This document shows, in pieces, positions 685-19,312 of a DNA stretch of 64,000 nucleotides. Both the position numbers and the translations under genes were made by a program. The stretch comes from Streptomyces sp. SCUT-3. GTDB lineage: Bacteria; Actinomycetota; Actinomycetes; Streptomycetales; Streptomycetaceae. The notes beneath the pieces are model-generated. The model worked only from the letters and a program-made list of their open reading frames with translations. It made no database searches and was not told the DNA's origin. Numbering within the stretch: position 1 is the stretch's first letter; each line of letters starts with the position of its first letter. The DNA is taken from contig NZ_CP046907.1 of NCBI RefSeq assembly GCF_014083985.1, positions 1,062,501 to 1,126,500 on the forward strand, read 5' to 3'.

Positions 685-1901
685 CCCGCAACATGATGCC
701 CATTCGTCGCGTCTTTCGCGTGGTGAACGGCGGGACACCCTCCTCCGAGCCAGAGAACTGGGGAGGGGACATCCCATGGGCCACACCGGCGGATTTCACC
801 GGCTGCCTAACCGAGATCACCACCACTCGTCGCACCCTGACCCCGGCAGGCGTTCGCTCCGGATCCGTCGTTGTGCCGCGGGGGTCACTCCTGGTGTCAA
901 CCCGCGCTCCAATTGGTTATGTCGGCATCACAGGTTCTGACATGGCCTTCAACCAAGGTTGCAGGGCCCTCGTCCCGCGGATGGCCGCGGATGTCAGATT
1001 CTTCGGTTACCAACTGGAGGCGCAACGGCTCGACCTTCAGGCGCAAGGCCTCGGGACGACCTTCCTCGAGCTGTCTTCGGACAAGTTGTCGTCCTTCACC
1101 GTTGTCACGCCCTCGCTGGACGATCAACACCGGATCGCGGACTTTCTTGACGCTGAAACGGCGCGCATCGACCAACTGATCGAACTCTACGGCCAACTTT
1201 CTCGATTGGCTGCCGAAAGATCACAGAGAGTAGTCGACAAAGCGGTGGAGGCGTGCACGGACATCGTTCCGCTCCGCTACATCGTCCGCTTCCGTGAAGG
1301 CCCAGGCATCATGGCCGTGGATTTTCACACCGCTGGAGTCCCGCTCATCCGTATCGCCGGTCTGAAGAAGGGCGAGGTCACCCTCAACGGATGCAATTTC
1401 CTAGACCCAGACAAGGTCGCTAGCCAGTGGTCCCAGTTCCGGCTCCGTCTCGACGACCGGCTGATCAGCGGAAGCGCCACAATGGGTGAGGTGTCGGTGG
1501 TACGGGACCCCGATGTCGTGGGCTCCGTGCCCTACACCGGCCTGATCATCCTGCGGCCGGCACAGGCGAACGTCGACATGAAGTACGTGGAGGCCTTCCT
1601 TAGGTCGTCCTTGTTCTCACGCCAAATCAACCTGCTCAAGACGGGGGCAACCATGCAGCACTTCGGACCTACTCACCTGTCCCAGGTGCGTGCACCGTTG
1701 CCGTCACCGGACCAGCAGCGCCGAGTTGCCGCAATCGCTCACGAGGCGCAGCGTCACGCCATGACGTGCGAAGAGTTGGCCACCCGGCAGGTCGCTTTGC
1801 TCAGCGAACGCCGTCACGCCCTGATTCACGCCGCCGTAACCGGCCAGTTCGACATCTCCAGTGCCAGCGGGCGCAACGTGACCGAAGGAGTCTCCGCATG
1901 A
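681..1901 (+). CDS. hsdS: Type I restriction-modification specificity subunit HsdS
   Basis: This 406-residue protein recognises the bipartite DNA target of the type I complex. It has the two-fold HsdS layout. Target-recognition domain 1 (about residues 5-140, opening RRVFRVVNGGTPSS) is followed by a conserved helix (LDDQHRIADFLDAETARID, from residue 146). Domain 2 (about 190-340) is followed by the second conserved helix (PDQQRRVAAIAHEAQ, about 343). The start at 681 is chosen because ATGA couples it to the hsdM stop; an upstream in-frame extension would read into hsdM in another frame. Its own stop overlaps the hsdR start in a second ATGA. The recognition sequence cannot be read from the protein. 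Confidence 0.95.
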   Translation: MTRNMMPIRRVFRVVNGGTPSSEPENWGGDIPWATPADFTGCLTEITTTRRTLTPAGVRSGSVVVPRGSLLVSTRAPIGYVGITGSDMAFNQGCRALVPRMAADVRFFGYQLEAQRLDLQAQGLGTTFLELSSDKLSSFTVVTPSLDDQHRIADFLDAETARIDQLIELYGQLSRLAAERSQRVVDKAVEACTDIVPLRYIVRFREGPGIMAVDFHTAGVPLIRIAGLKKGEVTLNGCNFLDPDKVASQWSQFRLRLDDRLISGSATMGEVSVVRDPDVVGSVPYTGLIILRPAQANVDMKYVEAFLRSSLFSRQINLLKTGATMQHFGPTHLSQVRAPLPSPDQQRRVAAIAHEAQRHAMTCEELATRQVALLSERRHALIHAAVTGQFDISSASGRNVTEGVSA

Positions 1902-4900
1902 GCCCCGTGCACGACGAGTCGTCCTTCGGCTCCGCCATCGTCGCCGCCCTCTGCGACCGCGGCTGGCGGGAGGCGAACCCGGAGGACTACCAAGCCGACC
2001 TCGGTCTGGACACCAACGAGCTATTCACCTTCATCGGCGCAACGCAGCCTGACGAGTGGGACGAACTGCTCACCGTCTACGGCGGCAACCCCAACGAGGC
2101 GCAGCGTGGTTTCGCGCAGCGCCTCGACCGGGCCATCGCCGACGACGGGCTGCTCCACGTTCTCCGCAACGGTGTGAAGGACCGCGGGGTCCGGCTCCGT
2201 GTCGCCTACTTCAAGCCCAACCTCATCTCCGCGGACTCCGTCCTCGACGGCTACCGGGCCAACCGTCTCACCGTCGTCCGCGAGCTCCCCTACGCCACCA
2301 AGCAGGCCGACTGGGGTCACCGCCTCGACCTGACCCTGTTCCTCAACGGCATCCCCGTCGCCACGGCCGAGCTGAAGAACCCGCTCACCGGTCAGGGCGT
2401 CGAGCAGGCCAAGGAGCAGTACCGGACCGACCGCGATCCGACCGAGCTGATCTTCACGCGTCGCGTGATCGCCAACTTCGCGGTCGACCCGGACCTGGTC
2501 TTCGTCACCACCCAACTGCGCGGCAAGAGCACCCGGTTCCTGCCGTTCAACACCGGTTCGAACGGCCCCGGTCAGCCCGGCGGGGCCGGCAACCCGGCGC
2601 CCACCGCCCACGGGAAGTACGCCACGTCCTACCTCTGGGAAGAGGTCTGGCAGCGGGACAACTGGCTGGACCTCCTCCAGCGTTTCGTGCACCAGCAGAA
2701 GCACAAGACGCCCGGCGGCGGCACCACCAAGTCGACGATCTTCCCCCGCTTCCACCAGTGGGACGTGGTCCGCAAGCTCACCGCGCACGCGTCCGTGCAC
2801 GGCGCCGACCAGAACTACCTGGTCATGGCGTCCGCCGGCTCCGGCAAGTCGAACACCATCGGCTGGCTGGCGCATCGCCTCAGCGACCTGCACGCCCGCC
2901 GCGATCCGCACGTCCTCCGGCCCGACGCCCTCGCCGACGGCCGCATCAAGCCGGGCGAGCCCGTCTTCGACAAGGTCATCGTCATCACCGACCGCCGCAA
3001 CCTGGACGCCCAGCTCTCGGCGACCGTCGGCAGCTTCTCGCAGACCGACGGCCTGGTCGTGAAGATCGACGAGAAGCACGGGGCGAAGGGCGAGCAGCTG
3101 GCCCGCGCGCTCTCCCGGGACACCGGGAAGATCGTCACAGTCACCCTGCACTCGTTCCCGGCGCTGCTGAACCACATCAAGAGCAACCCGGCCGAGATCA
3201 AGGGCACCCGCTTCGCGATCATCGTCGACGAGGCGCACTCCTCCCAGTCCGGCGACGCCGCCACCGCCGTGAAGTCCGCCCTGCGCGACCTCGGCCTGGA
3301 CGCCGACTCGGACGACGAGGGCGCGACCACGGTCACCGTGGAGGACAAGCTGAAGGCGAAGGCGGTCGAGCGCTCCCGGGCCGCCAACCTCTCCTACTTC
3401 GCCTTCACCGCCACCCCCAAGGCGAAGACGCTCGAACTCTTCGGCACGGAGGCCGTCGAGAACGGCAAGACCGTCTACCGGCCCTTCCACACCTACTCCA
3501 TGCGCCAGGCCATCGAGGAGGGCTTCATCCTCGACCCCCTGCGCAACTACGTCACCTACAACACCTACTGGAAGCTGGCGAACCTCAACCGCGACGAGAA
3601 GGAGGTCGACCCCTCCAAGGCGAACAGCCTGCTCGCCCGGTTCGCGCTCATGCACGAGCACACGGTGTCCCAGCACGCCCAGGTGATCGTCGAGCACTTC
3701 GTCGCCCACACCCGCGGCCGGCTCGGCGGACGGGCCAAGGCCATGGTGGTCACGGCGTCCCGCCACTCCGCCGTGCAGATGGCCCGTGCCATCCGCAGCT
3801 ACATCGCCGACCGCGAGTACGACACGAAGTACCCGGACCTCGGGGTCCTGGTCGCGTTCTCCGGCTCCCTCACCATCGACGGCGAGGAGACCACCGAGAG
3901 CAAGGAGAACGGCGGTCTGCCGGAGAGCGGGCTGCCCAAGGCGTTCGCCTACACCCGCGCCGACGACAAGGCCGCGAAGGCCGGCGGCAAGGGGCAGCAG
4001 GAGTACCGGATCCTGGTCGTCGCCGAGAAGTACCAGACCGGCTTCGACCAGCCGCTCCTCACCACGATGTACGTCAACAAGACGCTGACCGGCATCGCCG
4101 CCGTGCAGACGCTCTCGCGCCTCAACCGCACCGCCGACCGCAAGTCGCAGGCGGACCTGGCCGTCCTGGACTTCGTCAACGATGCCGAGGACATACAGGA
4201 CGCGTTCCGCCCGTACTTCGAGGAGGCGCACACCCTGCCCTCCGACCCGAATCTCCTGTACACGGCCCAGAGCCGCGTCATGTCCGCGCCGATCATCTCG
4301 GAGCAGGACATGGACGAGTTCGTCGCCGCGTACCTCGAGGCGCAGGAGAAGGCCGGCGGCTCCCAGGCCAAGTGGGAGAAGCTGCACGCCGAGCTGTACC
4401 GGCTCCTCTCCCCCGCCGTCACCCGCTTCAGCGCTCTCCTGGAGAGCGAGGAGGAGGACGACGTCGAGGCCGCCGAGGAGTTCCGCGCCCACCTCAACGA
4501 CTACGTCCGCAAGTACGGTTTCCTCGCGCAGATCGTCCCCTACCAGGACGCCGACCTGGAGCGGCTGTACCTGTACGGGCGTTACCTGCTCAACCGGCTG
4601 CCCCGCCTCGCGGACGGCGGCGTCGACATAGGCGAGGTCGACCTCAGCCACCTGCGCGTCGAGAAGACCGGCGAGCACGACAAGTCCCTGCTCCCCGAAG
4701 GCCCCGCCGAACTCAAGGGGTTCGGCGACGGGGTCGGCGGCGGGAAGGACGCCGAGAAGTCGCTGCTGTCCGAACTGATCGAGAAGTTCAACGCGAAGTT
4801 CGGCACGGAGTTCACCGAGGAGGACGTCCTCCCGGCCTTCAACGCCACGAAGAAGGACCCGAAGGTCCGGGCCGCCGCCCTCGTCAACGACGAGGAGAAC

Positions 4901-5080
4901 TTCGGCCTCGTCTTCGACAAGAAGTTCGAGGACAACATGATGGACCATGTCTCCACGATCGACACCCTCGGCAAGCGGTACTTCGGGACGGACCGGGACT
5001 TCAAGTCCAACCTCGACCGCAGCGCCCGCCGCGCGGCCTGGCGGATGATCCGCCAGGAGGAGGGGCTGGACGACTTCTGA
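1898..5080 (+). CDS. hsdR: Type I restriction endonuclease subunit HsdR
   Basis: This 1060-residue translocase-nuclease of the restriction complex is the usual length for the family. The N-terminal nuclease domain has a PD-(D/E)xK core: D144 in the DLTLFL strand, then E158-L-K160 in AELKNP. The SF2 motor follows with Walker A (SAGSGKS, about 311-317), DEAH (444-447), motif III (FTATP) and an arginine-finger motif VI near TLSRLNRTADR. The C-terminal helical domain binds the methyltransferase core. All catalytic motifs look intact, so the system is probably active. It starts at 1898 by ATGA overlap with hsdS. A strong hairpin begins within its stop codon and ends the operon. Confidence 0.96.
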   Translation: MSPVHDESSFGSAIVAALCDRGWREANPEDYQADLGLDTNELFTFIGATQPDEWDELLTVYGGNPNEAQRGFAQRLDRAIADDGLLHVLRNGVKDRGVRLRVAYFKPNLISADSVLDGYRANRLTVVRELPYATKQADWGHRLDLTLFLNGIPVATAELKNPLTGQGVEQAKEQYRTDRDPTELIFTRRVIANFAVDPDLVFVTTQLRGKSTRFLPFNTGSNGPGQPGGAGNPAPTAHGKYATSYLWEEVWQRDNWLDLLQRFVHQQKHKTPGGGTTKSTIFPRFHQWDVVRKLTAHASVHGADQNYLVMASAGSGKSNTIGWLAHRLSDLHARRDPHVLRPDALADGRIKPGEPVFDKVIVITDRRNLDAQLSATVGSFSQTDGLVVKIDEKHGAKGEQLARALSRDTGKIVTVTLHSFPALLNHIKSNPAEIKGTRFAIIVDEAHSSQSGDAATAVKSALRDLGLDADSDDEGATTVTVEDKLKAKAVERSRAANLSYFAFTATPKAKTLELFGTEAVENGKTVYRPFHTYSMRQAIEEGFILDPLRNYVTYNTYWKLANLNRDEKEVDPSKANSLLARFALMHEHTVSQHAQVIVEHFVAHTRGRLGGRAKAMVVTASRHSAVQMARAIRSYIADREYDTKYPDLGVLVAFSGSLTIDGEETTESKENGGLPESGLPKAFAYTRADDKAAKAGGKGQQEYRILVVAEKYQTGFDQPLLTTMYVNKTLTGIAAVQTLSRLNRTADRKSQADLAVLDFVNDAEDIQDAFRPYFEEAHTLPSDPNLLYTAQSRVMSAPIISEQDMDEFVAAYLEAQEKAGGSQAKWEKLHAELYRLLSPAVTRFSALLESEEEDDVEAAEEFRAHLNDYVRKYGFLAQIVPYQDADLERLYLYGRYLLNRLPRLADGGVDIGEVDLSHLRVEKTGEHDKSLLPEGPAELKGFGDGVGGGKDAEKSLLSELIEKFNAKFGTEFTEEDVLPAFNATKKDPKVRAAALVNDEENFGLVFDKKFEDNMMDHVSTIDTLGKRYFGTDRDFKSNLDRSARRAAWRMIRQEEGLDDF

Positions 5081-5118
5081 CAGAGGGGTCCTAGGTCCGC
5101 GCCTGGGGCCCCTGTCAG
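5077..5118 (+). terminator. Hairpin terminator after hsdMSR
   Basis: CTGACAGAGGGG (5077-5088) pairs with CCCCTGTCAG (5109-5118) with one bulged A. The left arm overlaps the hsdR stop codon. No T-run follows, as is common for actinomycete terminators. Confidence 0.6.
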
Positions 5119-5214
5119 GACATCTCCTACTACCAGGCATCCGGCTCGCGAGCCCCTCGCATCCTATGGCAGGCGAACGAGGACATGACGCCCTCGCTGC
5201 CAGGAAGGGACGCC

Positions 5215-5847
5215 ATGTTGTTCATATGTCCGCACTGCGCTCAGCCGGTTGAGCGCACTCGCGAGGGACTCGTGGCCCCTCACCAACTCACTGAGTTCAG
5301 TGCCATCCTCTGCAAAGGCGCGGGGCGTACACCGGCACACGAGGAGCGAGGGGCCGACCGCTGCAACGTGTCCTCCAAGGCGGAAAGACGGAATCCAGAA
5401 CTTCCTGCCCCCAGCTGGCTGCCGTCATGGCGTAAGCAACATCGTGCCTCAATTGCCCTTCCGGCCACTGATGCGCTTCGGATCTGGCTGCCAAATACTA
5501 CCGACTTGGGGCATATTGCATCCATCGGAACCATGATGTCTACAAGTACGCGGCCGATCTGGGATCCATTCAACCAGTGCTGGACGATCCCAAAGGGTCA
5601 TTTTCTGCCGATGGCCAACAAACTCGTTCGCCGCTACAGCAGCATCCTTCTGGGTCGCGAGTACAACCCTCGAGAGAAGTGCAACCATCGTTGCCAGAAC
5701 GCAAAGGGTCCGTATTGCACTTGCTCCTGCCTGGCGAAGAATCACGGACGCGGGCGGTGGATGAGAGGCTTTGCGCAGCTCGACGAGTTTGGGACCAGGT
5801 ACCGCGGTCAGTCCTGGCACTGGCAAGTCATGACCTTGGGGCGTTGA
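5215..5847 (+). CDS. Cys-rich hypothetical protein with two possible metal-binding motifs
   Basis: A 210-residue protein of unknown function. The N-terminus carries C-x2-C (C5, C8, in MLFICPHC). The C-terminal half has a dense cluster C156-x3-C160-x7-C168-x-C170-x-C172 followed by NHG, in the context QNAKGPYCTCSC. From memory, this type of motif is seen in proteins of actinobacterial plasmids and phages. The start at 5215 has a GGAAGGGA ribosome site 5 nt upstream; an in-frame ATG at 5185 lacks one. Base composition is clearly lower in GC than the neighbours (AT-rich around 5450-5700), pointing to recent transfer. It stands alone between the hsdR terminator and decayed DNA. Confidence 0.65.
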   Translation: MLFICPHCAQPVERTREGLVAPHQLTEFSAILCKGAGRTPAHEERGADRCNVSSKAERRNPELPAPSWLPSWRKQHRASIALPATDALRIWLPNTTDLGHIASIGTMMSTSTRPIWDPFNQCWTIPKGHFLPMANKLVRRYSSILLGREYNPREKCNHRCQNAKGPYCTCSCLAKNHGRGRWMRGFAQLDEFGTRYRGQSWHWQVMTLGR

Positions 5848-6117
5848 GGTGCCCAGTTCCCCTCACCACTATCCCCGGATGCTGCGTGGACTGGTTACCG
5901 GAGACATCCCCCGCCTGGGATCCTGCGTGGACTTCTGACGAGGGTGGGGGTCGGCACCGCTCAGTCCCGAACCCCAGGGGTTCCTGCCTGCTTCAGCCGC
6001 GCGCGGCCCGCTCCATGAACTCGGCCCAGGCCTTGAAGGGTCCATCGATTCCGGCTTTGTCCTCGTGGTCCAGTGGCATCGCTTGAATCTCTGCGCCCCG
6101 CCGACAGTCGACGAGCA
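5848..6117. other. Decayed intergenic DNA
   Basis: No intact gene is visible. On the minus strand, 5993-6115 reads as an open tail (QAMPLDHEDKAGIDGPFKAW, ending at a TGA at 5993-5995) closed upstream by an in-frame stop. It may be the 3' end of a lost gene, but the family is not recognisable. Confidence 0.3.
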
Positions 6118-6192
6118 GAGATGCTCAAGCCATCCCCACAGCACCACCTCGCCGCCCAGGAACTATGGCCCGCCTCCTGAGGCGTGCCCTAT

Positions 6193-7091
6193 GAGCTCGT
6201 AACACGATCTTGTTGAACTGCCCTGGTAGGCCGTGCCCGGTGTGACGATTCGGCCGTTCGAGAGGGTGTGACTACCCGGCCGTGGATCGTGGACGATGAC
6301 CTGTGGGCGCTGATCGAGCCGCTCCTGCCACCCTGGCCCGAGAAGGCTCCCGGTCCACGGCCCGTGCCGGACCGGCTGTGCCTGCAGGGCATCCTCTACG
6401 TCCTGTACAACGACATCGCCTGGCAACTGCTCCCCCTTGAGCTGGGGTTCGGCTCTGGTCAGACCTGCTGGCGGCGCCTCGAGCGCTGGCAACAGGCCGG
6501 AGTCTTCGACCAACTGCACCGCGTCCTGCTCGCCAGGCTGCACGCGGCCGGCGAGCTGGACTGGTCCAGAGCATGCGTCGACGGTTCCCACGTCCGCGCC
6601 AAAAAGGGGGAGCCGACACCGGTCCGTCGCCGGTCGACCGGCGGAAGACGGGCAGCAAACACCACCTGATCTGCGACGGACGCGGCACCCCGCTCAAGGT
6701 CATCACCACCGCGGCCAACGTCAACGACGTCACCCAGACCCTCGCCCTGGTCGACGGAGTCCCACCCGTCGCCGGCCGCCCGGGCCGACCCCGCCGGCGC
6801 CCCGAGGCCCTCCTCGGAGACAAGGGCTACGACTCCAACCCCAACCGCCGCGAACTGCGCAAACGCCGGATCCTGCCGGTCATCTCCCGCAAGGGCAGGC
6901 CTAACATCAAGGGCCTGGGCAAGCTCCGCTACGTCGTCGAGCAGACCTTCGCCCTCCTCCACCAGTTCAAGCGCCTCGCCGTCCGCTGGGAACGCCGCAC
7001 CGAGCTCCACGACGCCTTCGTCTCCCTCGCCTGCAGCCTCATCTGCTGGAGACGCCTCAAGAAGGCCAACTCATGATCGTGTTACGAGCTC
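6193..7091 (+). mobile_element. IS5-family insertion sequence, complete, with 3-bp target duplication
   Basis: An 899-bp element bounded by perfect 17-bp inverted repeats, GAGCTCGTAACACGATC at 6193-6209 and its complement at 7075-7091. It is flanked by TAT on both sides (6190-6192 and 7092-7094), the likely 3-bp target duplication. It carries one transposase in two overlapping frames, and its right repeat overlaps the transposase end. The intact repeats and duplication suggest a fairly recent insertion. It interrupts the RsbW-like pseudogene. Confidence 0.92.
6268..7076 (+). CDS. IS5-family DDE transposase made by -1 ribosomal frameshift
   Basis: The first frame (GTG start at 6268, running to about 6669) encodes the DUF4096-like N-terminus and the first catalytic Asp (CVDGSHV). 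The second frame (ending 7076) encodes the GGADTGPSPVDR, GDKGYDS (second Asp) and RYVVEQTFALL (catalytic Glu) segments. They join through a slippery A-AAG-GGG heptamer at 6603-6609. A -1 slip gives VRAKKGGADTG, which matches the uninterrupted family consensus. The fused product is about 269 residues, normal for the family. The second frame alone lacks the first Asp, so frameshifting should be needed for active enzyme. Confidence 0.88.
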
Positions 7092-7547
7092 TATGACAGC
7101 GAGAGGCACGGCGTGCTGAGCGAACTCGTTCCGCACCCGCCATCAATGCCGTCACCCACGGCTGCACGGTCGTCCGCGACTTCCCCATTCACTTCCTCGC
7201 CCTCTCCTCGCCCGCCGCTGCATCCCTCACCATCCGCGTGGAGGTCACCGACACGCGAGGTGACGAACTCCCCGCAACCGCTACCACCCCTGCAGCTGGC
7301 CCGCCCGTACCGGCGGACGCGGTCTGCTCCTGGCCGAGGCCCTCGCCGATCGCTGGGGCTGCGAACCGCGCCCGGACAGCCCCGGCAAGACGGTCCGGGC
7401 CGAGTACGCGGTGGCGCGATACGACCCGTCCGCCGTGCCCCCGTAGGGCAGGGCTGGACGCGGTGATCCCTTTGCGGGGAAACTGGCCGCGGCCAACGGG
7501 GCTCGGGGAACGGGCGAGCGCGAGTGCAGGACGCGGGGCGGGGACAA

Positions 7548-9140
7548 GTGCCGGACAGACCGATCGCGGGCCGCTACGAGCTGCTGGAGCGGCTCGGCAA
7601 CGGCGGCATGGGCGACGTGTGGCGGGGCTACGACGCGGTGCTCGACCGGCCCGTCGCCGTGAAGCGGATCCGGCCGCAGGCCGTCGCCGCCACGCCCCGG
7701 CTGGCCGAGGAGCTCGAGCGGCGCTTCCGTCGTGAGGCCCGGATCACCGCCCGCATCCAGCACCCGGGCGTGCCGCAGGTGTACGACGCCGTCCTCGACA
7801 GCACCTACGAGCACCTGTTCCTCGTCATGGAGCTGGTGGAGGGTGTCCCCCTCACCCGGTACGTGCAGGAGGAGCGGCCCCTCCCCGTCAGCTGGGCGGT
7901 GGCGGTCGCCGCGCAGGTCGCCACCGTGCTGTCGTACGCGCACGACGTGCCCGTGGTGCACCGCGACCTCAAGCCGTCCAACATCCTGGTCGCGCAGGAC
8001 GGCACGGTGAAGGTCCTCGACTTCGGCGTCGCGGCGATCCTGCAGACGGACGTCACGAGGCTGACCGCGACCGGCAGCCCCATCGGCACGCACCAGTACA
8101 TGTCCCCCGAGCAGGTGCGCGGCACCCGGGTCACCCCGCGCACCGACCTCTACGCCCTCGGCTGCGTGCTCCACGAACTCCTTTGCGGCAAGCAGCTGTT
8201 CAGTGCGAGCAGCGACTTCGAGCTGATGGACCAGCACGTCCGGGCCACGCCCACCCCGCTGCGGCGCCTGCGCGCCGACGTGCCGGAGGAACTGGAGGCG
8301 CTGGTCCTGCACCTGCTCCGCAAGACCCCGGAGAGCCGGCCGGTGGACGTGCAGGAAGTGTACGAGCGGCTGATGCCCTTCCTGCCCGCGCCCGGGGAGC
8401 CCTCCGCCCTCGGAGAGGCCGGGCCGCCCGGGGCGCCGGACCCGACCGGGCTCTACCGCCGCCCCTACGCGCCCCGCGCCCGGGCCGAGAGCCGTCCCCG
8501 TGTCGCCCCGGACACTGCGACGCCCGGCCGGGCCGCCGAGTACGTGGTCTCGCCGCCCGAGCGGGAGCTGCTGCGGGCCCAGTTGCGGGAGGTGGACGAG
8601 CACTACATCGCCCTCATGGAGGAGGAGCGCTACACGCAGGCCGCCGAGGTCGCGGGCGAGATGATCGAGCCGCTGGCGCGGGCCTTGGGCGCCGAGAACA
8701 AGGCCGTCCTGCGGCTGCGGCGCCGCCGGGCGGTCAGCCGGCAGCTGGCGGGCGACCACCGGGCGGCCCTGCCCGAGTTCGAGGCGCTGGCCGAGGCGTA
8801 CGGCCGCATCAACGGGCCGACCGGCGAGGCCGCCCGCGACTGCCGCGCCCAGGCCGCCCGCTGTCGCGGCGAACTCGGCCAGGTGACCGAGGCACTGGCG
8901 GAGCTGCAGGGCGTCCTCGAGGTGGAACGGGCCGTCGAGAGCGATGTCAGCGACGCGGCCGTGGAGCTGCGCCGTGACATCGGCATGCTGCTGCTCAGCC
9001 AGGGCAACCCGGTGGAGGCCCGGACGTGTCTGGAGGCCCTGTACGAGGACGTCGTGCTCGTCCACGGCCCGCGCCACGACGTGGCCGTCGAGGCCGCGGA
9101 GGTCCTGGCCATGCTCCGCCGCGAGCTCGACGGTGCGTGA
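7548..9140 (+). CDS. Cytosolic Ser/Thr protein kinase with a helical-repeat C-terminus
   Basis: This 530-residue protein has an N-terminal Hanks-type kinase domain. It has a glycine loop (LGNGGMG, 16-22), the ATP-binding lysine K39 in VAVKR, the catalytic loop HRDLKPSN (138-145) and DFG (158-160). An SPEQ activation segment follows. A Pro/Arg-rich linker (about 285-335) leads to a C-terminal helical region resembling tetratricopeptide repeats. No transmembrane segment or sensor domain is seen, so it probably acts in the cytosol. GTG 7548 has a GGGG site 8 nt upstream; GTG 7524 is an alternative start. It follows the remains of an RsbW-like ATPase, and its last 84 bases are duplicated at 13141. 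Confidence 0.88.
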   Translation: MPDRPIAGRYELLERLGNGGMGDVWRGYDAVLDRPVAVKRIRPQAVAATPRLAEELERRFRREARITARIQHPGVPQVYDAVLDSTYEHLFLVMELVEGVPLTRYVQEERPLPVSWAVAVAAQVATVLSYAHDVPVVHRDLKPSNILVAQDGTVKVLDFGVAAILQTDVTRLTATGSPIGTHQYMSPEQVRGTRVTPRTDLYALGCVLHELLCGKQLFSASSDFELMDQHVRATPTPLRRLRADVPEELEALVLHLLRKTPESRPVDVQEVYERLMPFLPAPGEPSALGEAGPPGAPDPTGLYRRPYAPRARAESRPRVAPDTATPGRAAEYVVSPPERELLRAQLREVDEHYIALMEEERYTQAAEVAGEMIEPLARALGAENKAVLRLRRRRAVSRQLAGDHRAALPEFEALAEAYGRINGPTGEAARDCRAQAARCRGELGQVTEALAELQGVLEVERAVESDVSDAAVELRRDIGMLLLSQGNPVEARTCLEALYEDVVLVHGPRHDVAVEAAEVLAMLRRELDGA

Positions 9141-9180
9141 CCGGCGCAGCACGGCCGGGAGAACCGGTGAACGGACGCCC
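9057..9180 (+). repeat. Duplicated kinase 3' end, left copy
   Basis: The last 84 coding bases of the kinase plus about 40 bp downstream recur at 13141-13263. The first 84 bases align without gaps with 4 mismatches; the downstream part aligns with a 1-nt gap and more differences. The two copies bracket the DUF262 and DUF6119 genes. Confidence 0.85.
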
Positions 9181-9341
9181 GCAGCCTGCCCCAGTTCGTC
9201 ACCTGCACCCGGACCTGAGGCCGGCTGTACTTCTCGTCGACGGGACAGCCCAGTCCGTTCCTGCGGAGGCCGACTGCGGGCAACAGCAGCCGCAAGGAGC
9301 CGGTGACAGGTCCACGCGGCTCCCTGCAGAACCTGCCGGTG

Positions 9342-11027
9342 TCAGCTCCGATCCGGTGTCGGCGCGTTCGTTTCCTCCGCGATCACTTCTTCGTCGGCCG
9401 GCGGCTCGTCGATCTCTCGGCGGACGGCCTGACCCGTGTAGTCGGGCAGGCCCAGCAACCGGTTGAGGGCGTTGGCCATCAGATGCCTCCGGGCAGCCAG
9501 GAATTCGGGGAAGCGGTCCAGGGACCGCAGCTCCGGGTCGCCGGGGATCCACTGCTCGGCCAGCCGCTCCGCCGCGATGCCGACCATGTACTCCGCAGGC
9601 AGCTTGGAGGAGATCATCTTGTTGGTCTGGCCCGTCACGAAGGCAAGGTTGGCCAGGCTGTTCCACTCTTCCTTGGGAAACGTCGACTGGACGCGCGCAC
9701 GAGGAAAGACATGATGGAACTCGATCTTGGCACGGGAGTTGACGGGCCGGTCGTTGATCGCGGTGTTGGTCGCCCAATCCTTGGCCCTCATCTCGAGTGC
9801 GGCGATGTAGAGGAGACGGAAGAAAGGATGGGTCGAGTACTTCTGCTCCAGGTCCCGCGGGTGGATCGGGCTGTCCACGGAGCGCGGGCCGAAAGCACGG
9901 CGGATGAGCTCGGTGAACAGATGCTCCCCTGCCCGCTCCTTGACCAGCCGCGCCTCGGCGTCGAGCTTGCCCTCCACCTGCAGGGAATAGTGGCTGAAGG
10001 CCATCGCGGTGTAGACCCACCGGCGCAGCAGTCCGACCTCTTCGGGCTGCAGCTTCCCCTGACGGTGATGCAGGAGCAGCGCAGGGACCACCACGACGTT
10101 CGGTGACGTGAGTACGTCCGAGCGGGGAATACCGCACTCTCCGCGAAGGAAGTCGACGGCGAGACGCAAGGCTGTTTCCGTGGCCTGCCACGCCTCCTTG
10201 AGGGCAGTCCCGTCCATGGTGGCACCGATCAGCTTGATGTGGCGGGCTGTCGTCCCCGCGAGCAGGCTCATGAGACGCAGGACCGCCTCCCGGTCGAGCC
10301 CAAAGCCGATGTCCCTCAACTCGTCGTGGAAGGCATCCATCGTCTGCAGGCCCTCCGCCCATCGGGCGGCGATCGCGCTGTAGACGAGGTCACCCTTGGA
10401 CAGCCGGCGCCCGCCCTTGTTGAGACGTGCGAAGACCTCGGCGACCTCCTCGTAGTCGTCGGAGCTGTAGGTGATCACCACGATCTGCTGCTTGCGGATG
10501 TCGTTGACCCGCTGAAGCCGCTTGGTCCACTCTCTGAAATCGGGGTGCCCCATTTCGACACCAGCGTCCATGAGGAGCTCGTAGAACTGGACCCCTTCTT
10601 GCAGGATCGTGGAAACGGGGATCAGGAGCGGGTCCTTGCGCTGCACCGCGCTCGGGTTGACGAACTCCTCGGTCCGTACATCGAACCGGAGGTCGATGAA
10701 ACGGCCGTCAGCCTTTGACTCGGGCCGATAGACCCATGCAAGCGAGGTGAGCCGCTGCTGCCCGTCCAGGAGGTACAACGGCTTCCGGGAAGACTTGGCG
10801 GACTGGACGACTGCCGCGGTCCGGAAGGGCACCTCCAGATTCGTCTCCCACAGAAGCAGCGCGCCCACGGGATAGCCCCGGTAGAGGGAGTCGAAGAGGT
10901 CACGTACATCGGTGCGCATCCAGACGAAGTCACGCTGGATGGACGGGATGACGATCTTGCCCTGCAGTAGATCTTCCACCGGAGAGACGACCGGCTCGTT
11001 GGACTGCTTCACACTCTCCCCCACCAA
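9342..11027 (-). CDS. GmrSD-like DUF262/DUF1524 protein (type IV restriction-like endonuclease)
   Basis: A 561-residue protein. The N-terminal DUF262 domain shows the ParB-like IPSIQRDFVW motif (27-36), LLDGQQRLTSL (86-96) and FARLNKGG, linked in this family to NTP binding or hydrolysis. The C-terminal DUF1524 domain has an HNH-type nuclease core: EFHHVFP (H438, H439) and a following NSLANLAFVTGQTN. The GmrS-GmrD pair and its single-chain relatives cut DNA with modified bases, so a phage-defence role is likely. The start is TTG at 11027, with GTG at 11024 as an alternative. It is transcribed divergently from the DUF6119 gene, and the pair lies between duplicated kinase fragments. Confidence 0.88.
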   Translation of the reverse strand: MVGESVKQSNEPVVSPVEDLLQGKIVIPSIQRDFVWMRTDVRDLFDSLYRGYPVGALLLWETNLEVPFRTAAVVQSAKSSRKPLYLLDGQQRLTSLAWVYRPESKADGRFIDLRFDVRTEEFVNPSAVQRKDPLLIPVSTILQEGVQFYELLMDAGVEMGHPDFREWTKRLQRVNDIRKQQIVVITYSSDDYEEVAEVFARLNKGGRRLSKGDLVYSAIAARWAEGLQTMDAFHDELRDIGFGLDREAVLRLMSLLAGTTARHIKLIGATMDGTALKEAWQATETALRLAVDFLRGECGIPRSDVLTSPNVVVVPALLLHHRQGKLQPEEVGLLRRWVYTAMAFSHYSLQVEGKLDAEARLVKERAGEHLFTELIRRAFGPRSVDSPIHPRDLEQKYSTHPFFRLLYIAALEMRAKDWATNTAINDRPVNSRAKIEFHHVFPRARVQSTFPKEEWNSLANLAFVTGQTNKMISSKLPAEYMVGIAAERLAEQWIPGDPELRSLDRFPEFLAARRHLMANALNRLLGLPDYTGQAVRREIDEPPADEEVIAEETNAPTPDRS

Positions 11028-11124
11028 TTTGTGTGTGTTGCAACCATGTTAGCCACCCCCCGACAACCGCCGGACACGACACATCCACCCCTCGTGCCAG
11101 CGACGGCACACCCCCACATCACAC

Positions 11125-11154
11125 TTGACGGCGCTTTCACTTTGATGAGAGATT
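11125..11154 (+). promoter_or_regulatory. Possible promoter for the DUF6119 gene
   Basis: TTGACG (11125-11130) lies 18 nt ahead of GAGATT (11149-11154) in an unusually AT-rich patch of the 281-bp divergent intergenic region. A start here would leave a 5' leader of about 145 nt. Tentative. Confidence 0.35.
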
Positions 11155-11308
11155 AATAACGCTTCCGCCATGAACGCTCTTCCGGGAGCAAGGATCTGCT
11201 CGGAGGAACGTGCCTCCGGTCGGCCAACAGTTGCCTGAGCTGGACGGTCCACAGGCTGATGGCCAACACGGACGAGTCCTGCTGTCATGCAGAGAGAAGG
11301 GGCCAGCC

Positions 11309-12979
11309 ATGAGCAACAGGAAGGCGACCCGGAAGTCGACTCTCTACCGGCTCACACTCCCGGACCGGAGCGAGACCGACCTTCGGACGTGTGTACGCGA
11401 CCGGTACCTGGAGAGCGACAACCACTCGGTCGCGACCTTCACCCGCGGCGACATCGACGGCTTGGTGGTCACCGGCGGTGTCCGGAAAGACCGCGCGGAC
11501 TGGTGTGACGCGGTCCAGATGATCACAGGGGTCGATGTGGATGTGGCCAGCCAGGCAGCGGCCGGACTCGTCATCACGCGAACCCCGACCGCTGTCTACG
11601 CCCTGACGTACGGCGTGGGCTACCACATGCTCGAATCGGACTACAAGGACGACGACTTCGGGCTGGAGTTCGCCACCCGGAGTCTGGACGAGGACGGCGT
11701 CATACGGATCCGAAACCTGATCATGGACGGTCGAGGGCGAGTGGATGAATCGTCCGTCTCCCGGGGAGACCGAATCGATGGGTTCGGCATCGATCGCTAC
11801 GGAGCCATCGTCAAGCGGTTGAGCGGCACGGTGAGCAACATCGCGCTGACTTCTGTCAGAGAAGGGCGGAAGAGCCAGATTCGTGTCGAGTGCGCGGGCA
11901 GTGCCATCAAGCTGCCACTCGCGACCCAGGTCGACGACTTCCTCAGCGATCTCAGGGCCATCGAGGGGGTCTGTGCAAGGCAGCCTCATCCGGACCTGCT
12001 TTTCATCGACCGGATCAGGGCTCTGCCCGCCTCCAGCCCGAAGGTCAAGGAGGCCCGGCAGGTCCTCGACGAGTTGCTGGCGAATCCGGCAGGTGAGCGG
12101 CTGGCCTTGGGCGTTCCGGAACAGTGCCTGGACAGCATCAACTCGGCTCAGTGCTTCCGGGTGAAGGGCCCCGGTCGTCCCCGCATGGATGTGGCGGACC
12201 TCGAACTCTCCGACCTGCTGGAGTACGTCCACCGCAAGCCAGCCGGCACCCGCCTGGAGGCCTTGGAACAAGTGCGTGTCACGCTCTTCAGTGATGAGGA
12301 CTGCCAGACCCCGGCCAGCAGCGCTGTCAAGGGGACGCACTGGCTTCTGGCTGATGTTCCGGTGGGATCCTCTCGCTTCTTCTACAGTCACGGACAGTGG
12401 TACGAGGTGGGTGCCATGTTCGTCGAGACACTCGAGGACGAGTTGCGGGAACTCCTGGGGAAGGCCCCGACGGTGTCTCTCCCGCCGTGGCCGAAGGGAC
12501 CGAAGGTCAAGAACCGGGACTCGCACGACGAGGACTGGTACAACAAGCAGATCGCCAAGCAGAAAGGCTTCACGCTTTTCGACAAGTCGAATCCGGTCAC
12601 CAAGAAGTTCAGAGGCGGCGGCCTGGAGATCTGTGACGTACTCGGCCCTGAGGGCCAGTTGATCTGTGTCAAGAAGGCGGACAGCAAGACGTCACCGCTG
12701 AACCACCTCTTCGCCCAGGCATCCGTGGCTGTCGAAGCCCTTCGGACCGATCCCGAGATGCGAGCGGCGTTCCAGCAGCAGGTTGCGGACCGCGCGGCCG
12801 ATGAACAGGCACCGGACGGCGGAACCTTTCATGTGATTCTGGGGATACTCCTCAAGGACGGGGAGGACATCACAGTCACCTCCCTCTTCGCGTTCGCCCA
12901 GGTCTCTCTCCTGCAGCACGTCAGGCGACTCCGCGCGATGAACGCCGAGGTGGAAGTGACCACCATCCGCCGGCAATAG
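11309..12979 (+). CDS. DUF6119 family (TIGR04141) protein
   Basis: A 556-residue protein that matches what I know of the sporadically distributed TIGR04141/DUF6119 family: N-terminal LYRLTLPDR, a YALTYGVGYHML segment, WLLADV and FFYSHGQWYEVG in the middle, and FDKSNP and ICDVLGPEGQLICVKKA near the end. The biochemical function is not established. The family is patchy and often turns up beside restriction and other defence genes. The start at 11309 has an AGAGAGAAGGGG ribosome site. Its neighbour, on the other strand, is the DUF262/DUF1524 endonuclease; duplicated kinase sequence flanks both, so they probably moved together. Confidence 0.82.
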   Translation: MSNRKATRKSTLYRLTLPDRSETDLRTCVRDRYLESDNHSVATFTRGDIDGLVVTGGVRKDRADWCDAVQMITGVDVDVASQAAAGLVITRTPTAVYALTYGVGYHMLESDYKDDDFGLEFATRSLDEDGVIRIRNLIMDGRGRVDESSVSRGDRIDGFGIDRYGAIVKRLSGTVSNIALTSVREGRKSQIRVECAGSAIKLPLATQVDDFLSDLRAIEGVCARQPHPDLLFIDRIRALPASSPKVKEARQVLDELLANPAGERLALGVPEQCLDSINSAQCFRVKGPGRPRMDVADLELSDLLEYVHRKPAGTRLEALEQVRVTLFSDEDCQTPASSAVKGTHWLLADVPVGSSRFFYSHGQWYEVGAMFVETLEDELRELLGKAPTVSLPPWPKGPKVKNRDSHDEDWYNKQIAKQKGFTLFDKSNPVTKKFRGGGLEICDVLGPEGQLICVKKADSKTSPLNHLFAQASVAVEALRTDPEMRAAFQQQVADRAADEQAPDGGTFHVILGILLKDGEDITVTSLFAFAQVSLLQHVRRLRAMNAEVEVTTIRRQ

Positions 12980-13140
12980 CAAGAACGCGCGGTCACTCCG
13001 CACATGGGCTCAGCGCGGCGCTGCTCAAGGGAGCCTGAACTCCGTCTACTGCGGCGAGTCGTGCCCTACCCTCTGGTGATGGCCGCTCTGCTGTCCCGTC
13101 GGCCCGTACATCACGGCCCTCACCGCCTGCTGACCACCAA
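12980..13140. other. Junction DNA between the DUF6119 gene and the duplicated kinase end
   Basis: No gene is seen. This 160-bp stretch separates the inserted gene pair from the right-hand copy of the kinase 3' end. Confidence 0.4.
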
Positions 13141-13263
13141 CTCGTCCACGGCCCACGCCACGACGTGGCCGTCGAGGCCGCGGAGGTCCTGGCCGTGCTC
13201 CGCCGCGAGCTCGACGGCGAGTGACTGGCGGAGCACGGCCGGAAAGCCGGTGGACGAACGCCG
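13141..13263 (+). repeat. Duplicated kinase 3' end, right copy
   Basis: An in-frame fragment reads LVHGPRHDVAVEAAEVLAVL and continues to a TGA at 13222-13224, matching the end of the kinase gene at 9057-9140. It has no start of its own and is a relic of the duplication. Confidence 0.85.
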
Positions 13264-13292
13264 GAACGGCCTGCGGCCGCACCGCGGCGGCC

Positions 13293-13304: not shown

Positions 13305-15446
13305 ATGCCGCATCTTGCCCTCGACATCGCCTTCTGCCAGCAGCTGGAGAAGCTCGAGAAGCACGTCAGGAACGGCGTGTTCGACGCCTGGGAGAAGTTC
13401 GAGCGGCTCACCCTCGACCAGCTCTTCAAGGACCCGGGTCTGAAGCTGGAATCCCTCAAGGGCGCCAAGGACCGGCAGATCCGGACCGTCCGGATCACCC
13501 AGGGATACCGCGGTGTGGTCCTCGCGCCCGAGACGGGGGACACCTTCGTGCTGCTCCGGGTCGGCCCGCACGACGAGGCCACCGAGTGGGCGGTGAAGCA
13601 GAAGGCGACCATCAACGCCGTCACCGGCGCCGTGGAGCTCCGCGAGATCGCCACCCTGGAAGAGCTGGCCCCCGCCTACGAGCGCATCGCGCCCGCCGAG
13701 GAGCAGCGGCTGTTCGCAAAGGTCTCCGACGGGGAGATGGCCGCGCTCGGCATCGACGACACCACCCTCGCGCAGGCACGCGTGCTGACCAGCCTGGAAC
13801 AGCTCGACGTCTTCGGACGGTTCTTCCCGCCCGACCAGTACAAGGTCCTGGAGCACCTGGCCCTCGGTGCGAGTGTCGAGCAGACGTGGCAGGAGGTCGT
13901 CGTGCCGGCGCTGGCCGACGCGGCCTCCCAGGAACCCGTCGACACCACCGACTACGCGACTGCCATCGCGCACACCCGCACCAGGATCGCCGTCGTCACG
14001 GACGCCGACGAACTGCGCGACATCCTCGACAAGCCGTTCGCCGCCTGGCGGATCTTCCTGCACCCCGCCCAGCGCAAGGTCGCCTACCGTCCGTCGTACT
14101 CCGGCCCCGCGCAGGTGAGCGGCGGGCCCGGCACCGGGAAGTCCGTTGTAGCCCTCCACCGGGTGCGGCACCTGCTGCGGCACCTTCGCGACGGCGACCG
14201 CATCCTCCTCACCACCTTCACCAACGCCCTCGTGGACTCCCTCAGCGAAGGACTCTGCCTGCTCGTCGACGATCCGGACCTGCGCGACCGGGTCGACGTC
14301 ATGACCGTCGACGCCTTCGCCGGGCGCGTGGTCAGCACCTCGCGCCGGCCGCTCACCGGGTACGAGGAGACCGCCCGGTGGGAGCGGGCCGCGGAAGCCA
14401 CCGGCTTCACCGGAACCCCGCAGTTCCTCGCCCAGGAGTACAAGCACGTCGTCCTCGCCCAGGACATCCGCAGCCGGGAGGAGTACGAGCGCTGCGAGCG
14501 CCGGGGCCGCGGCAGCGCACTGCCGTCCTCCGTCCGGCCGCTGGTGTGGCGGACCGTGGAGGAGTTCGCCCGACGCCTGGCCGAGGACGGGCTGCGCACC
14601 TACCTCGGCACCTGCGTGGAGGCCACCGACCTGCTGACCGAGCAGGGGCCGTACTACCGGCACGTCGTCGTCGACGAGGCCCAGGACCTCCACCCCGCCC
14701 AGTGGCGGATGCTCCGCGCGGCCGCCCCGCGGCGCCCCGACGACCTGTTCATCGCCGGCGACCCGCACCAGCGGATCTACGACAACCGGGTGTCGCTGAA
14801 GTCCCTCGGCATCAACGTCGCCGGCCGTTCGACCAAGCTGCGCAAGAACTACCGCTCCACCCAGGAGATCCTCAGCTGGGCGACGGGACTCCTGCTCGGC
14901 CGCCCCTACGCCGAACTGGCCGACAGCGGGAGGCACGACACCCTGATCGGGTACAGCTCCGCCCTGCACGGCTCCGGACCACACGTCCACGCGGCCCGGA
15001 CGGAGGGGGCCGAACTCGACGCCTTGGTCGAGCAGGTGCGTGCATGGGTGGACGGCGGTGCCGCGTACGGGGAGATCGGGATCTGCGCCCGGTTCAACAA
15101 GACCTGCGAGAAGGCCAAGGCCCGCCTGATCGCGGCCGGCATCCCCGCCAGCCGGGTCCGCGCGGGAGCCGCCCGCACCGACGACGCGGTCAACGTGGGC
15201 ACCATGCACACCTTCAAGGGGCTCGAGTACCGCTACACCGCCGTCATCGGCGTCAACGACCGTGCTCTGCCGAACCCTTCGGCCATCACCCCGGAGGAGG
15301 TCGACCGGCTCCAGCACGAGGCCGACCTCGCCGCGGAACGCTGCCTGCTGTTCGTCGCCTGCACCCGGGCCCGGGACGGCCTGTACCTCTCGTGGACTGG
15401 GCAGCCGAGCCCGTTCCTGGTGGAAGCCGGCTGCGGGGCGGGATGA
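13305..15446 (+). CDS. UvrD-like helicase with RelE/ParE-like N-terminal domain (copy 1)
   Basis: A 713-residue protein. Residues 1-110 resemble the RelE/ParE toxin fold (KFERLTLDQL, IRTVRITQGYRGVVLAP, VLLRVGPHDEATEWA). An uncharacterised linker precedes an SF1A helicase: Walker A GGPGTGKS (273-280), DEAQD (457-461), GDPHQRIYDN, KNYRSTQEI, GTMHTFKGLEYR and a C-terminal VACTRAR motif VI. All helicase motifs look intact. It shares length, order and many motifs with the gene at 17036. The toxin-like domain may bind RNA or ribosomes or serve only as a structural module; this is unknown. The start is leaderless. DNA repair or defence roles are both possible. Confidence 0.85.
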   Translation: MPHLALDIAFCQQLEKLEKHVRNGVFDAWEKFERLTLDQLFKDPGLKLESLKGAKDRQIRTVRITQGYRGVVLAPETGDTFVLLRVGPHDEATEWAVKQKATINAVTGAVELREIATLEELAPAYERIAPAEEQRLFAKVSDGEMAALGIDDTTLAQARVLTSLEQLDVFGRFFPPDQYKVLEHLALGASVEQTWQEVVVPALADAASQEPVDTTDYATAIAHTRTRIAVVTDADELRDILDKPFAAWRIFLHPAQRKVAYRPSYSGPAQVSGGPGTGKSVVALHRVRHLLRHLRDGDRILLTTFTNALVDSLSEGLCLLVDDPDLRDRVDVMTVDAFAGRVVSTSRRPLTGYEETARWERAAEATGFTGTPQFLAQEYKHVVLAQDIRSREEYERCERRGRGSALPSSVRPLVWRTVEEFARRLAEDGLRTYLGTCVEATDLLTEQGPYYRHVVVDEAQDLHPAQWRMLRAAAPRRPDDLFIAGDPHQRIYDNRVSLKSLGINVAGRSTKLRKNYRSTQEILSWATGLLLGRPYAELADSGRHDTLIGYSSALHGSGPHVHAARTEGAELDALVEQVRAWVDGGAAYGEIGICARFNKTCEKAKARLIAAGIPASRVRAGAARTDDAVNVGTMHTFKGLEYRYTAVIGVNDRALPNPSAITPEEVDRLQHEADLAAERCLLFVACTRARDGLYLSWTGQPSPFLVEAGCGAG

Positions 15447-15723
15447 CCGGCACGGTCAACCCACCATCCCCGAGACGGGCAAATGCAAATACCAACAGGG
15501 AGTTTGACGATGCTTTCACTCCCATGGGAGAGTGGGGACGCTTCAGCTCGTGAAGGCGGCGCGGCGAAGGACGTCGCGGCGCGAAGGGGTGGACGGGCGG
15601 TGGCGAGGGGGACGTGGCTTCAACAGCCCACAGTCTTGCCGGGGGTCCCGGCGGCCGGAATCCTTCTCCTGCCCGCAGCAGTGCGGGACGCCCCCGGCGG
15701 GGCGCTCGCGGAAGGGGTGTGTG

Positions 15724-16470
15724 ATGGCCGACGAGAAGACTCCCGACGAGAAGATCTCCGACGAGGGAGCGGTCGAGAAGGCCGGGCGGTGGGTCGCCGA
15801 TCTCGCGGAGAAGATCATGGTGAACGGCGTGGGGCCGGTCACGGGGTCGGTGCCCTGGGCCGAGGACCGTCTTTCGCGTCGGCAGGGCGCCGACTACAGG
15901 GCGCCCGATGACGACGAGCGCCGTTCTCCCGAGGACATGAAAGACGACATCGATGCGGTCGTCGCCCGCCTCATCAAGGAGTCCGTGGCTGCTGCCGGGA
16001 CCCAGGGGTTCGTCACCGGGCTCGGAGGTCTGCTCACCGCAGGCGTGACGATCCCTGCGAATGTGGCCGCGTCCGTCGCCATCAACTTGCGGATGGCCGG
16101 TTCCATAGCGCACCTTCGGGGATGGGACATCCGTGATTCGCACGTGCGGACCGTCGTGATGATGCTCGCGATCGGGATGAGCACGCAGAAAGTCCTGGCA
16201 GCCTTCGGGGTGAAGATCGGTCAGAAGCTCGGCGAGCAGATGATCAAGAAGATCCCGATGGCGGTGCTCCATGCGATCAACAAGAAGGTCGGATTCTACC
16301 TCGTCTCGAAATATGGAACCCAGCGCGCTGCGGTCACGCTCGCCAAGGGGATCCCGATCCTGGGGGGCATTGTCGGAGGCGCTGTGGACGCAGGGGCGAC
16401 TGCTGTCATCGGACGGGCCACGGACAAGGCCTTGCGCGGCGACACCCTTCAGGCCGAGGAACCGAATTGA
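15724..16470 (+). CDS. EcsC family protein
   Basis: A 248-residue protein. After a charged, Asp/Glu-rich N-terminus (about 1-75), it has the EcsC-like body: AAGTQGFVTGLGGLLTAG and IPANVAASVAINLRMAGSIA (about 92-125), then VRTVVMMLAIG, KKIPMAVLHAINKKVGFYL, and a Gly-rich hydrophobic end (PILGGIVGGAVDAG). The hydrophobic stretches suggest membrane association. The family has no firm biochemical role; its name comes from a gene next to an ABC exporter in Bacillus. The ATG at 15724 follows a weak site. It lies between the two helicase paralogues, with 277 bp of featureless DNA upstream. Confidence 0.75.
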   Translation: MADEKTPDEKISDEGAVEKAGRWVADLAEKIMVNGVGPVTGSVPWAEDRLSRRQGADYRAPDDDERRSPEDMKDDIDAVVARLIKESVAAAGTQGFVTGLGGLLTAGVTIPANVAASVAINLRMAGSIAHLRGWDIRDSHVRTVVMMLAIGMSTQKVLAAFGVKIGQKLGEQMIKKIPMAVLHAINKKVGFYLVSKYGTQRAAVTLAKGIPILGGIVGGAVDAGATAVIGRATDKALRGDTLQAEEPN

Positions 16471-16860: not shown

Positions 16861-17035
16861 AGGCTCGGACCACGCGCTCGGCCCGGGCCCCTTCTCCTCC
16901 CCTTCCCCGGACCTCCGGGCGGGCAGGAGGCCGCGGCGACCGTCCGTCACACCTCGTACCCGTGCTCGCACCCGTGGTCAGTACAGTGATCACACCGCCG
17001 GGGCGGGCGGGCGGGCGGCGACGCGGAGGGGCGGC

Positions 17036-19278: not shown

Positions 19279-19306
19279 TTGACGCCGGGGAGTGGTCTGG
19301 CAGAAT
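19279..19306 (+). promoter_or_regulatory. Leaderless promoter of the ATPase-HEPN operon
   Basis: TTGACG (19279-19284), a 16-nt spacer, then CAGAAT (19301-19306), with the ATG at 19313 six bases later. There is no ribosome-binding site. The spacing fits initiation on the start codon itself. Confidence 0.6.
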
Positions 19307-19312
19307 CCCGCC

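What the first reader, a model, noticed from the sequence alone, without database searches (positions are those of the whole stretch)
9057..13263. Duplicated kinase 3' end brackets a DUF262/DUF6119 cassette
The last 84 coding bases of the kinase gene (9057-9140) recur at 13141-13224 with only 4 mismatches, and similarity fades downstream in both. Between them lie exactly two divergent genes. This is the footprint of insertion next to the kinase, with the 3' end rebuilt or carried from a donor. It gives a clear left and right edge for a mobile defence cassette.
Basis: partly seen in the sequence, partly recalled or inferred. Interest (0 to 1): 0.62.

Follow-up and report, generated by a model that had tools for sequence, protein, structure and literature searches.

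The report
Defence-gene insertion between kinase and helicase
Two likely antiviral genes were inserted between a kinase gene and a helicase gene of a Streptomyces defence island, leaving broken bits of both neighbours at the edges, and related bacteria keep different genes, or none, in the same slot.

Summary
The repeat is real: the last 84 kinase coding bases recur at 13141-13224 (80/84 identical) and the match runs about 50 bases further. The predicted empty site exists: kinase directly followed by helicase in 14 of 24 named loci, including 7 of the 10 nearest. S. somaliensis carries the same insertion with both junctions, S. prasinopilosus a decayed form; rpoB places neither beside this genome. 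DUF262 relatives elsewhere also lie near helicases or helicase tails (6 of 8 loci), so the tail probably came with DUF262. Over the coding part both kinase-end copies look native, favouring a local duplication made on insertion. The kinase-helicase junction holds different genes in other genomes. DUF6119 carries an operator-like element that this genome has at two other places, both in the island. Best reading: illegitimate or homology-facilitated insertion of a helicase-tail-DUF262-DUF6119 unit, later spread with the island; no integrase was recognised between the repeats. Moderately interesting; slot plus shared operator is the most novel part.

The parts
7524..9140 (+). Ser/Thr kinase gene with C-terminal TPR match; full copy, left flank of the insertion
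   Evidence: Pfam Pkinase 1.5e-50, TPR_12 4.1e-9; PADLOC PD-T4-6 and mad6 kinase models
9057..9189 (+). left copy of the direct repeat: kinase 3' end (84 coding nt) plus about 50 nt of the kinase-helicase spacer
9180..9280 (+). scrap of the helicase gene's 3' end (matches 15339-15437), joined to the spacer at GCCTGC
   Evidence: also in L037 (above shuffles). In L051 and L053 only parts align to the window scrap, and those parts are not above shuffles as helicase matches
9342..11027 (-). DUF262 protein, GmrSD/BrxU-like; DGQQR and HHVFP motifs
   Evidence: Pfam GmrSD_N 4.9e-29; profile of alignment A2 matches chain 7p9k_A at 2.2e-29, positions 7-521 of 532; motifs
11125..11168 (+). operator-like element TTGAC-N3-GCTTTCACT ... 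CGCTTC in the DUF262/DUF6119 divergent promoter
   Evidence: one of 2 exact 17-mer matches in the genome; second GCTTC 28 nt on
11309..12979 (+). DUF6119 / TIGR04141 protein, function unknown
   Evidence: Pfam 4.1e-106; TIGR04141 2e-97; conserved E-x-C-D ... V-K ... H-L-x-x-Q in 8 aligned proteins
13141..13274 (+). right copy of the direct repeat: 5'-truncated kinase 3' end plus spacer
13305..15446 (+). UvrD-like helicase gene, full copy, right flank of the insertion
   Evidence: Pfam UvrD-helicase 1.5e-21
15504..15547 (+). second copy of the operator-like element, between helicase and EcsC gene
15724..16470 (+). EcsC-like gene that follows the helicase in the nearest empty-site relatives too
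   Evidence: Pfam EcsC 4.6e-9; synteny in L031-L036 and L038

Best explanation
An ancestral island had hsdM-hsdS-hsdR-kinase-helicase-EcsC. A linear unit, [helicase 3' tail - DUF262(-) - operator - DUF6119], was joined into the kinase-helicase junction: its left end to the spacer at a 6-nt microhomology (GCCTGC), its right end about 130 bp upstream inside the kinase, so that the last 84 kinase coding bases plus spacer now stand on both sides. The kinase stayed whole on the left and the helicase on the right. Shown: both scraps, empty sites, the same two junctions in S. somaliensis, and DUF262 relatives near helicases or helicase tails elsewhere. Inferred: that the joining was illegitimate or homology-facilitated rather than enzyme-driven, and that the tail came in with DUF262. 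Functionally DUF262 most likely acts as a modification-dependent (type IV) nuclease and DUF6119 as an accessory effector under the island's own control; neither is tested.
For: Empty site in 14 of 24 named loci, gap 57-110 nt. Both junctions shared with S. somaliensis L037 (window 7097-11059 collinear at 91%; right junction read by eye). The scraps in the window, L037, L053 and L051 share a small insertion between CCTGC and TTCGTC, suggesting one origin (by eye). DUF262 relatives (76-80%): G289 has kinase-helicase-1.7 kb-DUF262(-); G311, G159 and G390 have a helicase tail of 64-70 codons (84-94% to the G289 helicase), 1.7 kb and DUF262 as one unit collinear with G289 over 3.65 kb at 85-86%, with only helicase fragments in the 20-kb stretch. 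Kinase-end copies about equally near to native relatives in the coding part and sharing base 9122. The two genes recognised in the interval are not mobility genes.
Against: Base 9122 is shared only by the two window copies although L037 has the same insertion; this needs gene conversion in this lineage or a separate event. In the non-coding part the right copy is nearer than the left to each of 8 empty-site sequences over the same 48-49 columns (by 1 to 6 bases; G248 42 against 37); loss of constraint explains this, but so would a donor left copy. As helicase matches, the scrap pieces in L051 and L053 do not exceed shuffles (17 against 18 and 15 against 18). G311, G159 and G390 are one shared locus, so tail-carrying is seen in about two independent cases; in G083 and G367 a kinase-like gene lies between helicase and DUF262. 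No donor of the right subtype was found, so microhomology at the right junction could not be examined. DUF262 and DUF6119 were not found paired outside the three insert-bearing species, so joint arrival in one step is inference.
Confidence: 0.55

Rival explanations
1. Merger of two kinase-helicase loci, or single crossover of a circular donor carrying kinase end, broken helicase, DUF262 and DUF6119, followed by loss: left copy lost the helicase interior, right copy lost the kinase body.
For: The order kinase - helicase tail - cargo - kinase tail - helicase is what a single crossover leaves; G289 shows a kinase-helicase-DUF262 locus that could be such a donor; the left helicase deletion has a 6-nt microhomology; the right spacer is slightly nearer to natives than the left.
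Against: Over the coding part neither kinase-end copy looks foreign. No complete second kinase or helicase was seen between kinase and helicase in the loci.
Confidence: 0.27
2. Local tandem duplication of kinase end and helicase first, cargo inserted between the two copies later.
For: Both kinase-end copies look native over the coding part; the scrap is nearer to helicases of this subgroup (80/101 to its own) than to that of G289 (74%).
Against: Needs one more event, and does not explain helicase tails near DUF262 in G311, G159, G390 and the helicase near DUF262 in G289.
Confidence: 0.12
3. Integrase-type site-specific integration at the 3' end of the kinase gene, the repeat being attL/attR.
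For: Integration at gene 3' ends that rebuilds the gene is a familiar pattern (own knowledge); empty sites exist.
Against: No integrase recognised in the interval; the repeat is imperfect (89%); a helicase scrap follows it; of 13 other inserted loci tested only S. somaliensis L037 shows the kinase-end repeat or helicase tail clearly above shuffles.
Confidence: 0.03

Closest known systems
BrxU / GmrSD type IV restriction enzymes (PMC8565348: search listing and passages seen)
   Same: DUF262 domain, DGQQR motif, an HNH-like H-h-x-F-P motif (BrxU has DHIYP), near full-length profile match to chain 7p9k; the paper's text holds the code 7P9K once (passage not shown). brxU too is a gene placed inside another defence locus, between brxC and pglX (passage).
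   Different: Distant in sequence; sits in a type I RM-kinase-helicase island, not BREX.
RptR-controlled type I RM island of enteropathogenic E. coli (PMC12255303: outline with abstract, and passages seen)
   Same: A type I RM island with embedded extra defence genes and repeats in the RM promoter.
   Different: The two elements in the window hold none of the four RptR site variants; the element here stands before separate accessory genes; its regulator is unknown.
Core defence hotspots of P. aeruginosa (PMC10250203: listing with start of abstract only)
   Same: Defence content that varies at a fixed place (general idea; details not read).
   Different: Here the flanks are themselves genes of one defence island and the slot is the space between kinase and helicase.
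Homology-facilitated illegitimate recombination (PMC3240628: listing with start of abstract only)
   Same: One homologous end, one illegitimate end.
   Different: Here only the footprint is seen; which end was homologous, if any, is not known.

Membership tests
GmrSD/BrxU type IV restriction enzyme (for the DUF262 protein) | DUF262 (GmrS) domain with DGQQR motif | tested here: met
   Pfam GmrSD_N 102.3 bits, cut-off 33.2; DGQQR invariant at residues 87-91 of 4 aligned proteins
GmrSD/BrxU type IV restriction enzyme (for the DUF262 protein) | DUF1524 HNH domain with DHIYP-like motif | tested here: inconclusive
   No Pfam DUF1524 hit, but HHVFP with later conserved N residues and profile match to 7p9k through the C-terminal part
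GmrSD/BrxU type IV restriction enzyme (for the DUF262 protein) | cleavage of modified DNA | not testable with these tools
   needs biochemistry
DUF6119 / TIGR04141 | profile score above curated cut-off | tested here: met
   356.1 bits against 27; 326.8 against 35
Site-specific integrative element | recombinase gene inside the element | tested here: not met
   only DUF262 and DUF6119 recognised; overlapping alternative frames were not scanned against families
Site-specific integrative element | empty site in relatives | tested here: met
   14 of 24 named loci
MADS (methylation-associated defence system) | MAD2 and MAD6 above NCBIfam cut-offs | tested here: not met
   HTH-methylase 19.9 against 720, kinase 146.6 against 460 bits
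RptR regulon | TAGCTA-type sites in the promoter | tested here: not met
   none of 4 variants in either window element; one site of another genome, G090, does hold TAGCTA. No search for an RptR protein was made

The most novel reading that the evidence does not exclude
The kinase-helicase junction is a plug-in slot of a Streptomyces type I RM-kinase-helicase island, and cargo genes arrive with, or are selected for, the island's own operator (GAC-N3-GCTTTCA, second GCTT about 28 nt on), so that one island regulator, perhaps the HTH-methylase at the head of the RM operon, controls the RM operon, DUF6119, EcsC and an OLD-type cargo gene together.
Probability: 0.3. Interest if true: 0.66.

Novelty: new variant of a known kind. 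Interest (0 to 1): 0.46.

Why it matters
It shows how a defence island can gain cargo without a visible recombinase: scraps of the neighbours record the joining, and a DUF262 gene seems to carry a helicase tail with it. If the shared operator is real, newly gained defence genes can be wired at once into an existing island's control, which would help explain how islands grow without harming the host. The slot and the operator give simple search handles for new defence genes in Streptomyces.

Tried and rejected
Integrase-type insertion: no recombinase recognised in the interval, imperfect repeat, no such repeat in other inserts. Insertion sequence: IS4/5-type transposase frames lie at 6268-7076, upstream of the kinase, not at either edge.

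Hope that other inserts in the same slot would show kinase-end or helicase-end repeats: of 14 inserted loci tested, the window included, only the window and L037 exceed their shuffles clearly. Three single comparisons (L042 and L097 kinase end, L100 helicase end) exceed the shuffle maximum by 1-2 points and are not counted; L051 and L053 do not exceed it. So the repeat is not the general mark of the slot.

Viral contigs held no relative of either protein by that search. DUF6119 has no convincing relative of known structure by sequence (only hit E 0.23). Paper searches: DUF6119 gave one plant paper, TIGR04141 none; a search on the MADS defence system listed 8 unrelated papers of 9,744.

The chance figure printed assumes independent hits; the genomes are related, so it is not used. 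On a first, longer element pattern, 3 of 9 hits in 121 genomes (G004, G030, G099) had none of the probe genes within the 10-kb stretch fetched.
Full report
OBSERVATION. The direct repeat is present as described: 80 of 84 coding bases agree between 9057-9140 and 13141-13224, and the match continues into the non-coding spacer to 9189 / 13274 (89%). Scores are far above block shuffles (90 against at most 19 of 30). The stretch 9057-9345 gave three matches in the own genome: itself, the right copy, and the 3' end of the helicase gene (40 of 212 first-look candidates were scored). The left side is therefore full kinase, part of the spacer, helicase scrap; the right side is kinase scrap, spacer, full helicase.

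EMPTY SITE. One scan of the named genome collection with the kinase gave 24 loci. In 14 of 24 the kinase is followed by the helicase after 57-110 nt. Among the 10 nearest (L031-L038, L051, L053) 7 are empty (L031-L036, L038). L037 (S. somaliensis) has the same insertion: window 7097-11059 is collinear with it at 91%, helicase scrap included, and the right junction is the same by eye, but DUF6119 and the helicase carry deletions. L053 (S. prasinopilosus) has DUF262 at 96.8% amino-acid identity, a DUF6119 fragment, and a 360-aa gene inside the scrap. L051 (Streptomyces sp. DH5) has about the first 35 nt of the scrap and that 360-aa gene but no DUF262. The scrap in L051 and L053 rests on alignment to the window scrap; as direct helicase matches these pieces do not exceed shuffles. 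Of the other 14 loci, 7 are empty, 3 (L040, L042, L045) have other inserts, 3 (L039, L041, L052) show no helicase in the locus held, and one (L054) is a distant clostridial kinase (29% identity).

ONE ORIGIN, MOVED SIDEWAYS. The scraps in the window, L037, L053 and L051 share a small insertion relative to the intact helicase, between CCTGC and TTCGTC (by eye), which points to one origin. On a tree of 1800 rpoB bases the window groups with empty-site species L031, L032 and L035 (support 99/99), and starred branches force at least 2 changes for the insertion label (shuffled labels do as well in 500 of 500, so the label is not clustered at all). DH5 was not held, and S. capoamus L034 was left out because its rpoB match is broken. 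Kinase, helicase and hsdR of the close group are 91-96% identical to this genome, in most pairs above the rpoB value of 90.6-92.9% (L036 is an exception for kinase and helicase), so the island itself seems to move. The kinase-helicase pair is swapped as a block: in G289, L042, L043 and L044 hsdR is 92-94.5% identical in amino acids while kinase and helicase are 67-74%.

WHICH COPY IS NATIVE. Over the coding part both copies are about equally similar to the 8 empty-site sequences (G248 77/84 each, L031 76/84 each; elsewhere they differ by at most 1), and both carry C at 9122, seen in none of the 8 nor in L037 (both copies), L051 or L053. In the non-coding part, over the same 48-49 columns, the right copy is nearer to all 8, by 1 to 6 bases (G248 42 against 37). 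That is expected if it still lies before the helicase while the left spacer drifts, but would also fit a foreign left spacer. On balance this favours a local duplication made on insertion; gene conversion between the copies is the alternative for base 9122.

WHERE THE HELICASE SCRAP COMES FROM. Of 394 family genomes, 11 hold a DUF262 relative at E<=1e-100: the window, 8 full-length ones at 76-80%, one at 52%, one partial at 78%. I fetched 20 kb around the 8 full-length ones. G289: kinase-helicase-1.7 kb-DUF262 on the opposite strand. G311, G159, G390 (one shared locus): the last 64-70 helicase codons (84-94% to the G289 helicase), 1.7 kb and DUF262, collinear with G289 over 3.65 kb at 85-86%, then a fragment of another helicase beginning at residue 552; no complete helicase in the stretch, though G311 has a kinase-helicase pair about 22 kb away. 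G083 and G367: a more distant UvrD-like helicase (36-37%) faces DUF262, with a kinase-like gene between. G098 and G360: no helicase found. So 6 of 8 have a helicase or its tail within about 2 kb. The scrap in the window fits this habit; it is nearer to helicases of its own subgroup (80/101 to its own) than to that of G289 (74%).

THE SLOT. Other loci hold at this junction: a gene of 720-758 aa (L045, L088, L089, L090, L096; AIPR/AbiU-like in the one tested, L088); a WD40/AAA protein plus an LCAT-like protein (L042); an OLD/GajA-like gene after the kinase (L041; the contig ends before any helicase); a protein with a NucA/NucB domain (L040).

OPERATOR-LIKE ELEMENT. TTGAC-N3-GCTTTCACT occurs twice in the own genome, both times in this island, with no hit of the reversed control. 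In 121 family genomes it gave 9 hits in 7 genomes; three of those genomes (G004, G030, G099) showed none of the probe genes nearby. The pattern GAC-N3-GCTTTCAC-N4-ATG gives 23 hits in 20 of 394 family genomes and, in the table, 1 hit of the reversed control; 19 of the 23 lie within 30 kb of a strong kinase match, and 4 (G064, G389, G357, G299) do not. In this genome the three sites are upstream of the HTH-methylase/hsdM operon, in the DUF262/DUF6119 promoter, and between helicase and EcsC gene. Of 29 distinct loose matches in the loci held, 16 have a second GCTTC/G exactly 28 nt on, 4 more at 27 or 29, and 9 none. A copy also precedes the OLD gene in L041. In L037 the stretch with the element is deleted while DUF262 is whole, which suggests that the element serves DUF6119 rather than DUF262.

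PROTEINS. DUF262: GmrSD_N domain, DGQQR and HHVFP, near full-length profile match to chain 7p9k. That 7p9k is BrxU rests on the paper's text holding that code once. DUF6119: TIGR04141 family. In 394 family genomes 9 hold it at E<=1e-100 (relatives 56-63%). In G002, G197, G081 and G178 it is divergent from an HTH-methylase followed by hsd genes and a kinase; in G101 and G090 it lies near such genes, broken in G090; in G209 none of the probe genes was found within the stretch. The G083 copy has the same coordinates as that on a Streptomyces plasmid, and on this and a second plasmid it stands beside annotated type I RM genes. It is thus a usual companion of this kind of island that here sits in the slot.

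VERDICT. Best reading: a helicase-tail-DUF262-DUF6119 unit was joined into the kinase-helicase junction with a short local duplication, then spread with the island.

Noticed in passing
window 11125-11168 and 15504-15547; G000:C1:1058855-1058875: Operator-like element found at three places of the island and nowhere else in the genome by the pattern; also near the same kinase in many relatives.
   Followed up: partly
L041 2128-2170; L040 3949: The same kind of element stands at the start of other inserts in the kinase-helicase slot (an OLD-type gene in L041; only the first half in L040).
   Followed up: partly
L181 (G289) 1-7408; L042, L043, L044: Kinase-helicase pair swapped as a block behind a conserved hsdR (hsdR 92-94.5%, kinase and helicase 67-74% amino-acid identity).
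   Followed up: no
L051 11855-12937; L053 about 8650-9730: A 360-aa gene without a Pfam family at the cut-off is inserted inside the helicase scrap in two species; a relative at 53% lies about 8.7 kb from DUF262 in L177.
   Followed up: partly
window 6268-7076: IS4/5-type transposase in two overlapping frames, upstream of the kinase gene.
   Followed up: no
window 17027-19177 and 19292-25159: A second UvrD-like helicase paralogue and a 1955-aa protein with a weak AAA match follow EcsC.
   Followed up: no
L134 14912-17188: N6-methylase with a weak N-terminal helix-turn-helix match at the head of the RM operon, right beside the operator-like element; candidate regulator.
   Followed up: partly
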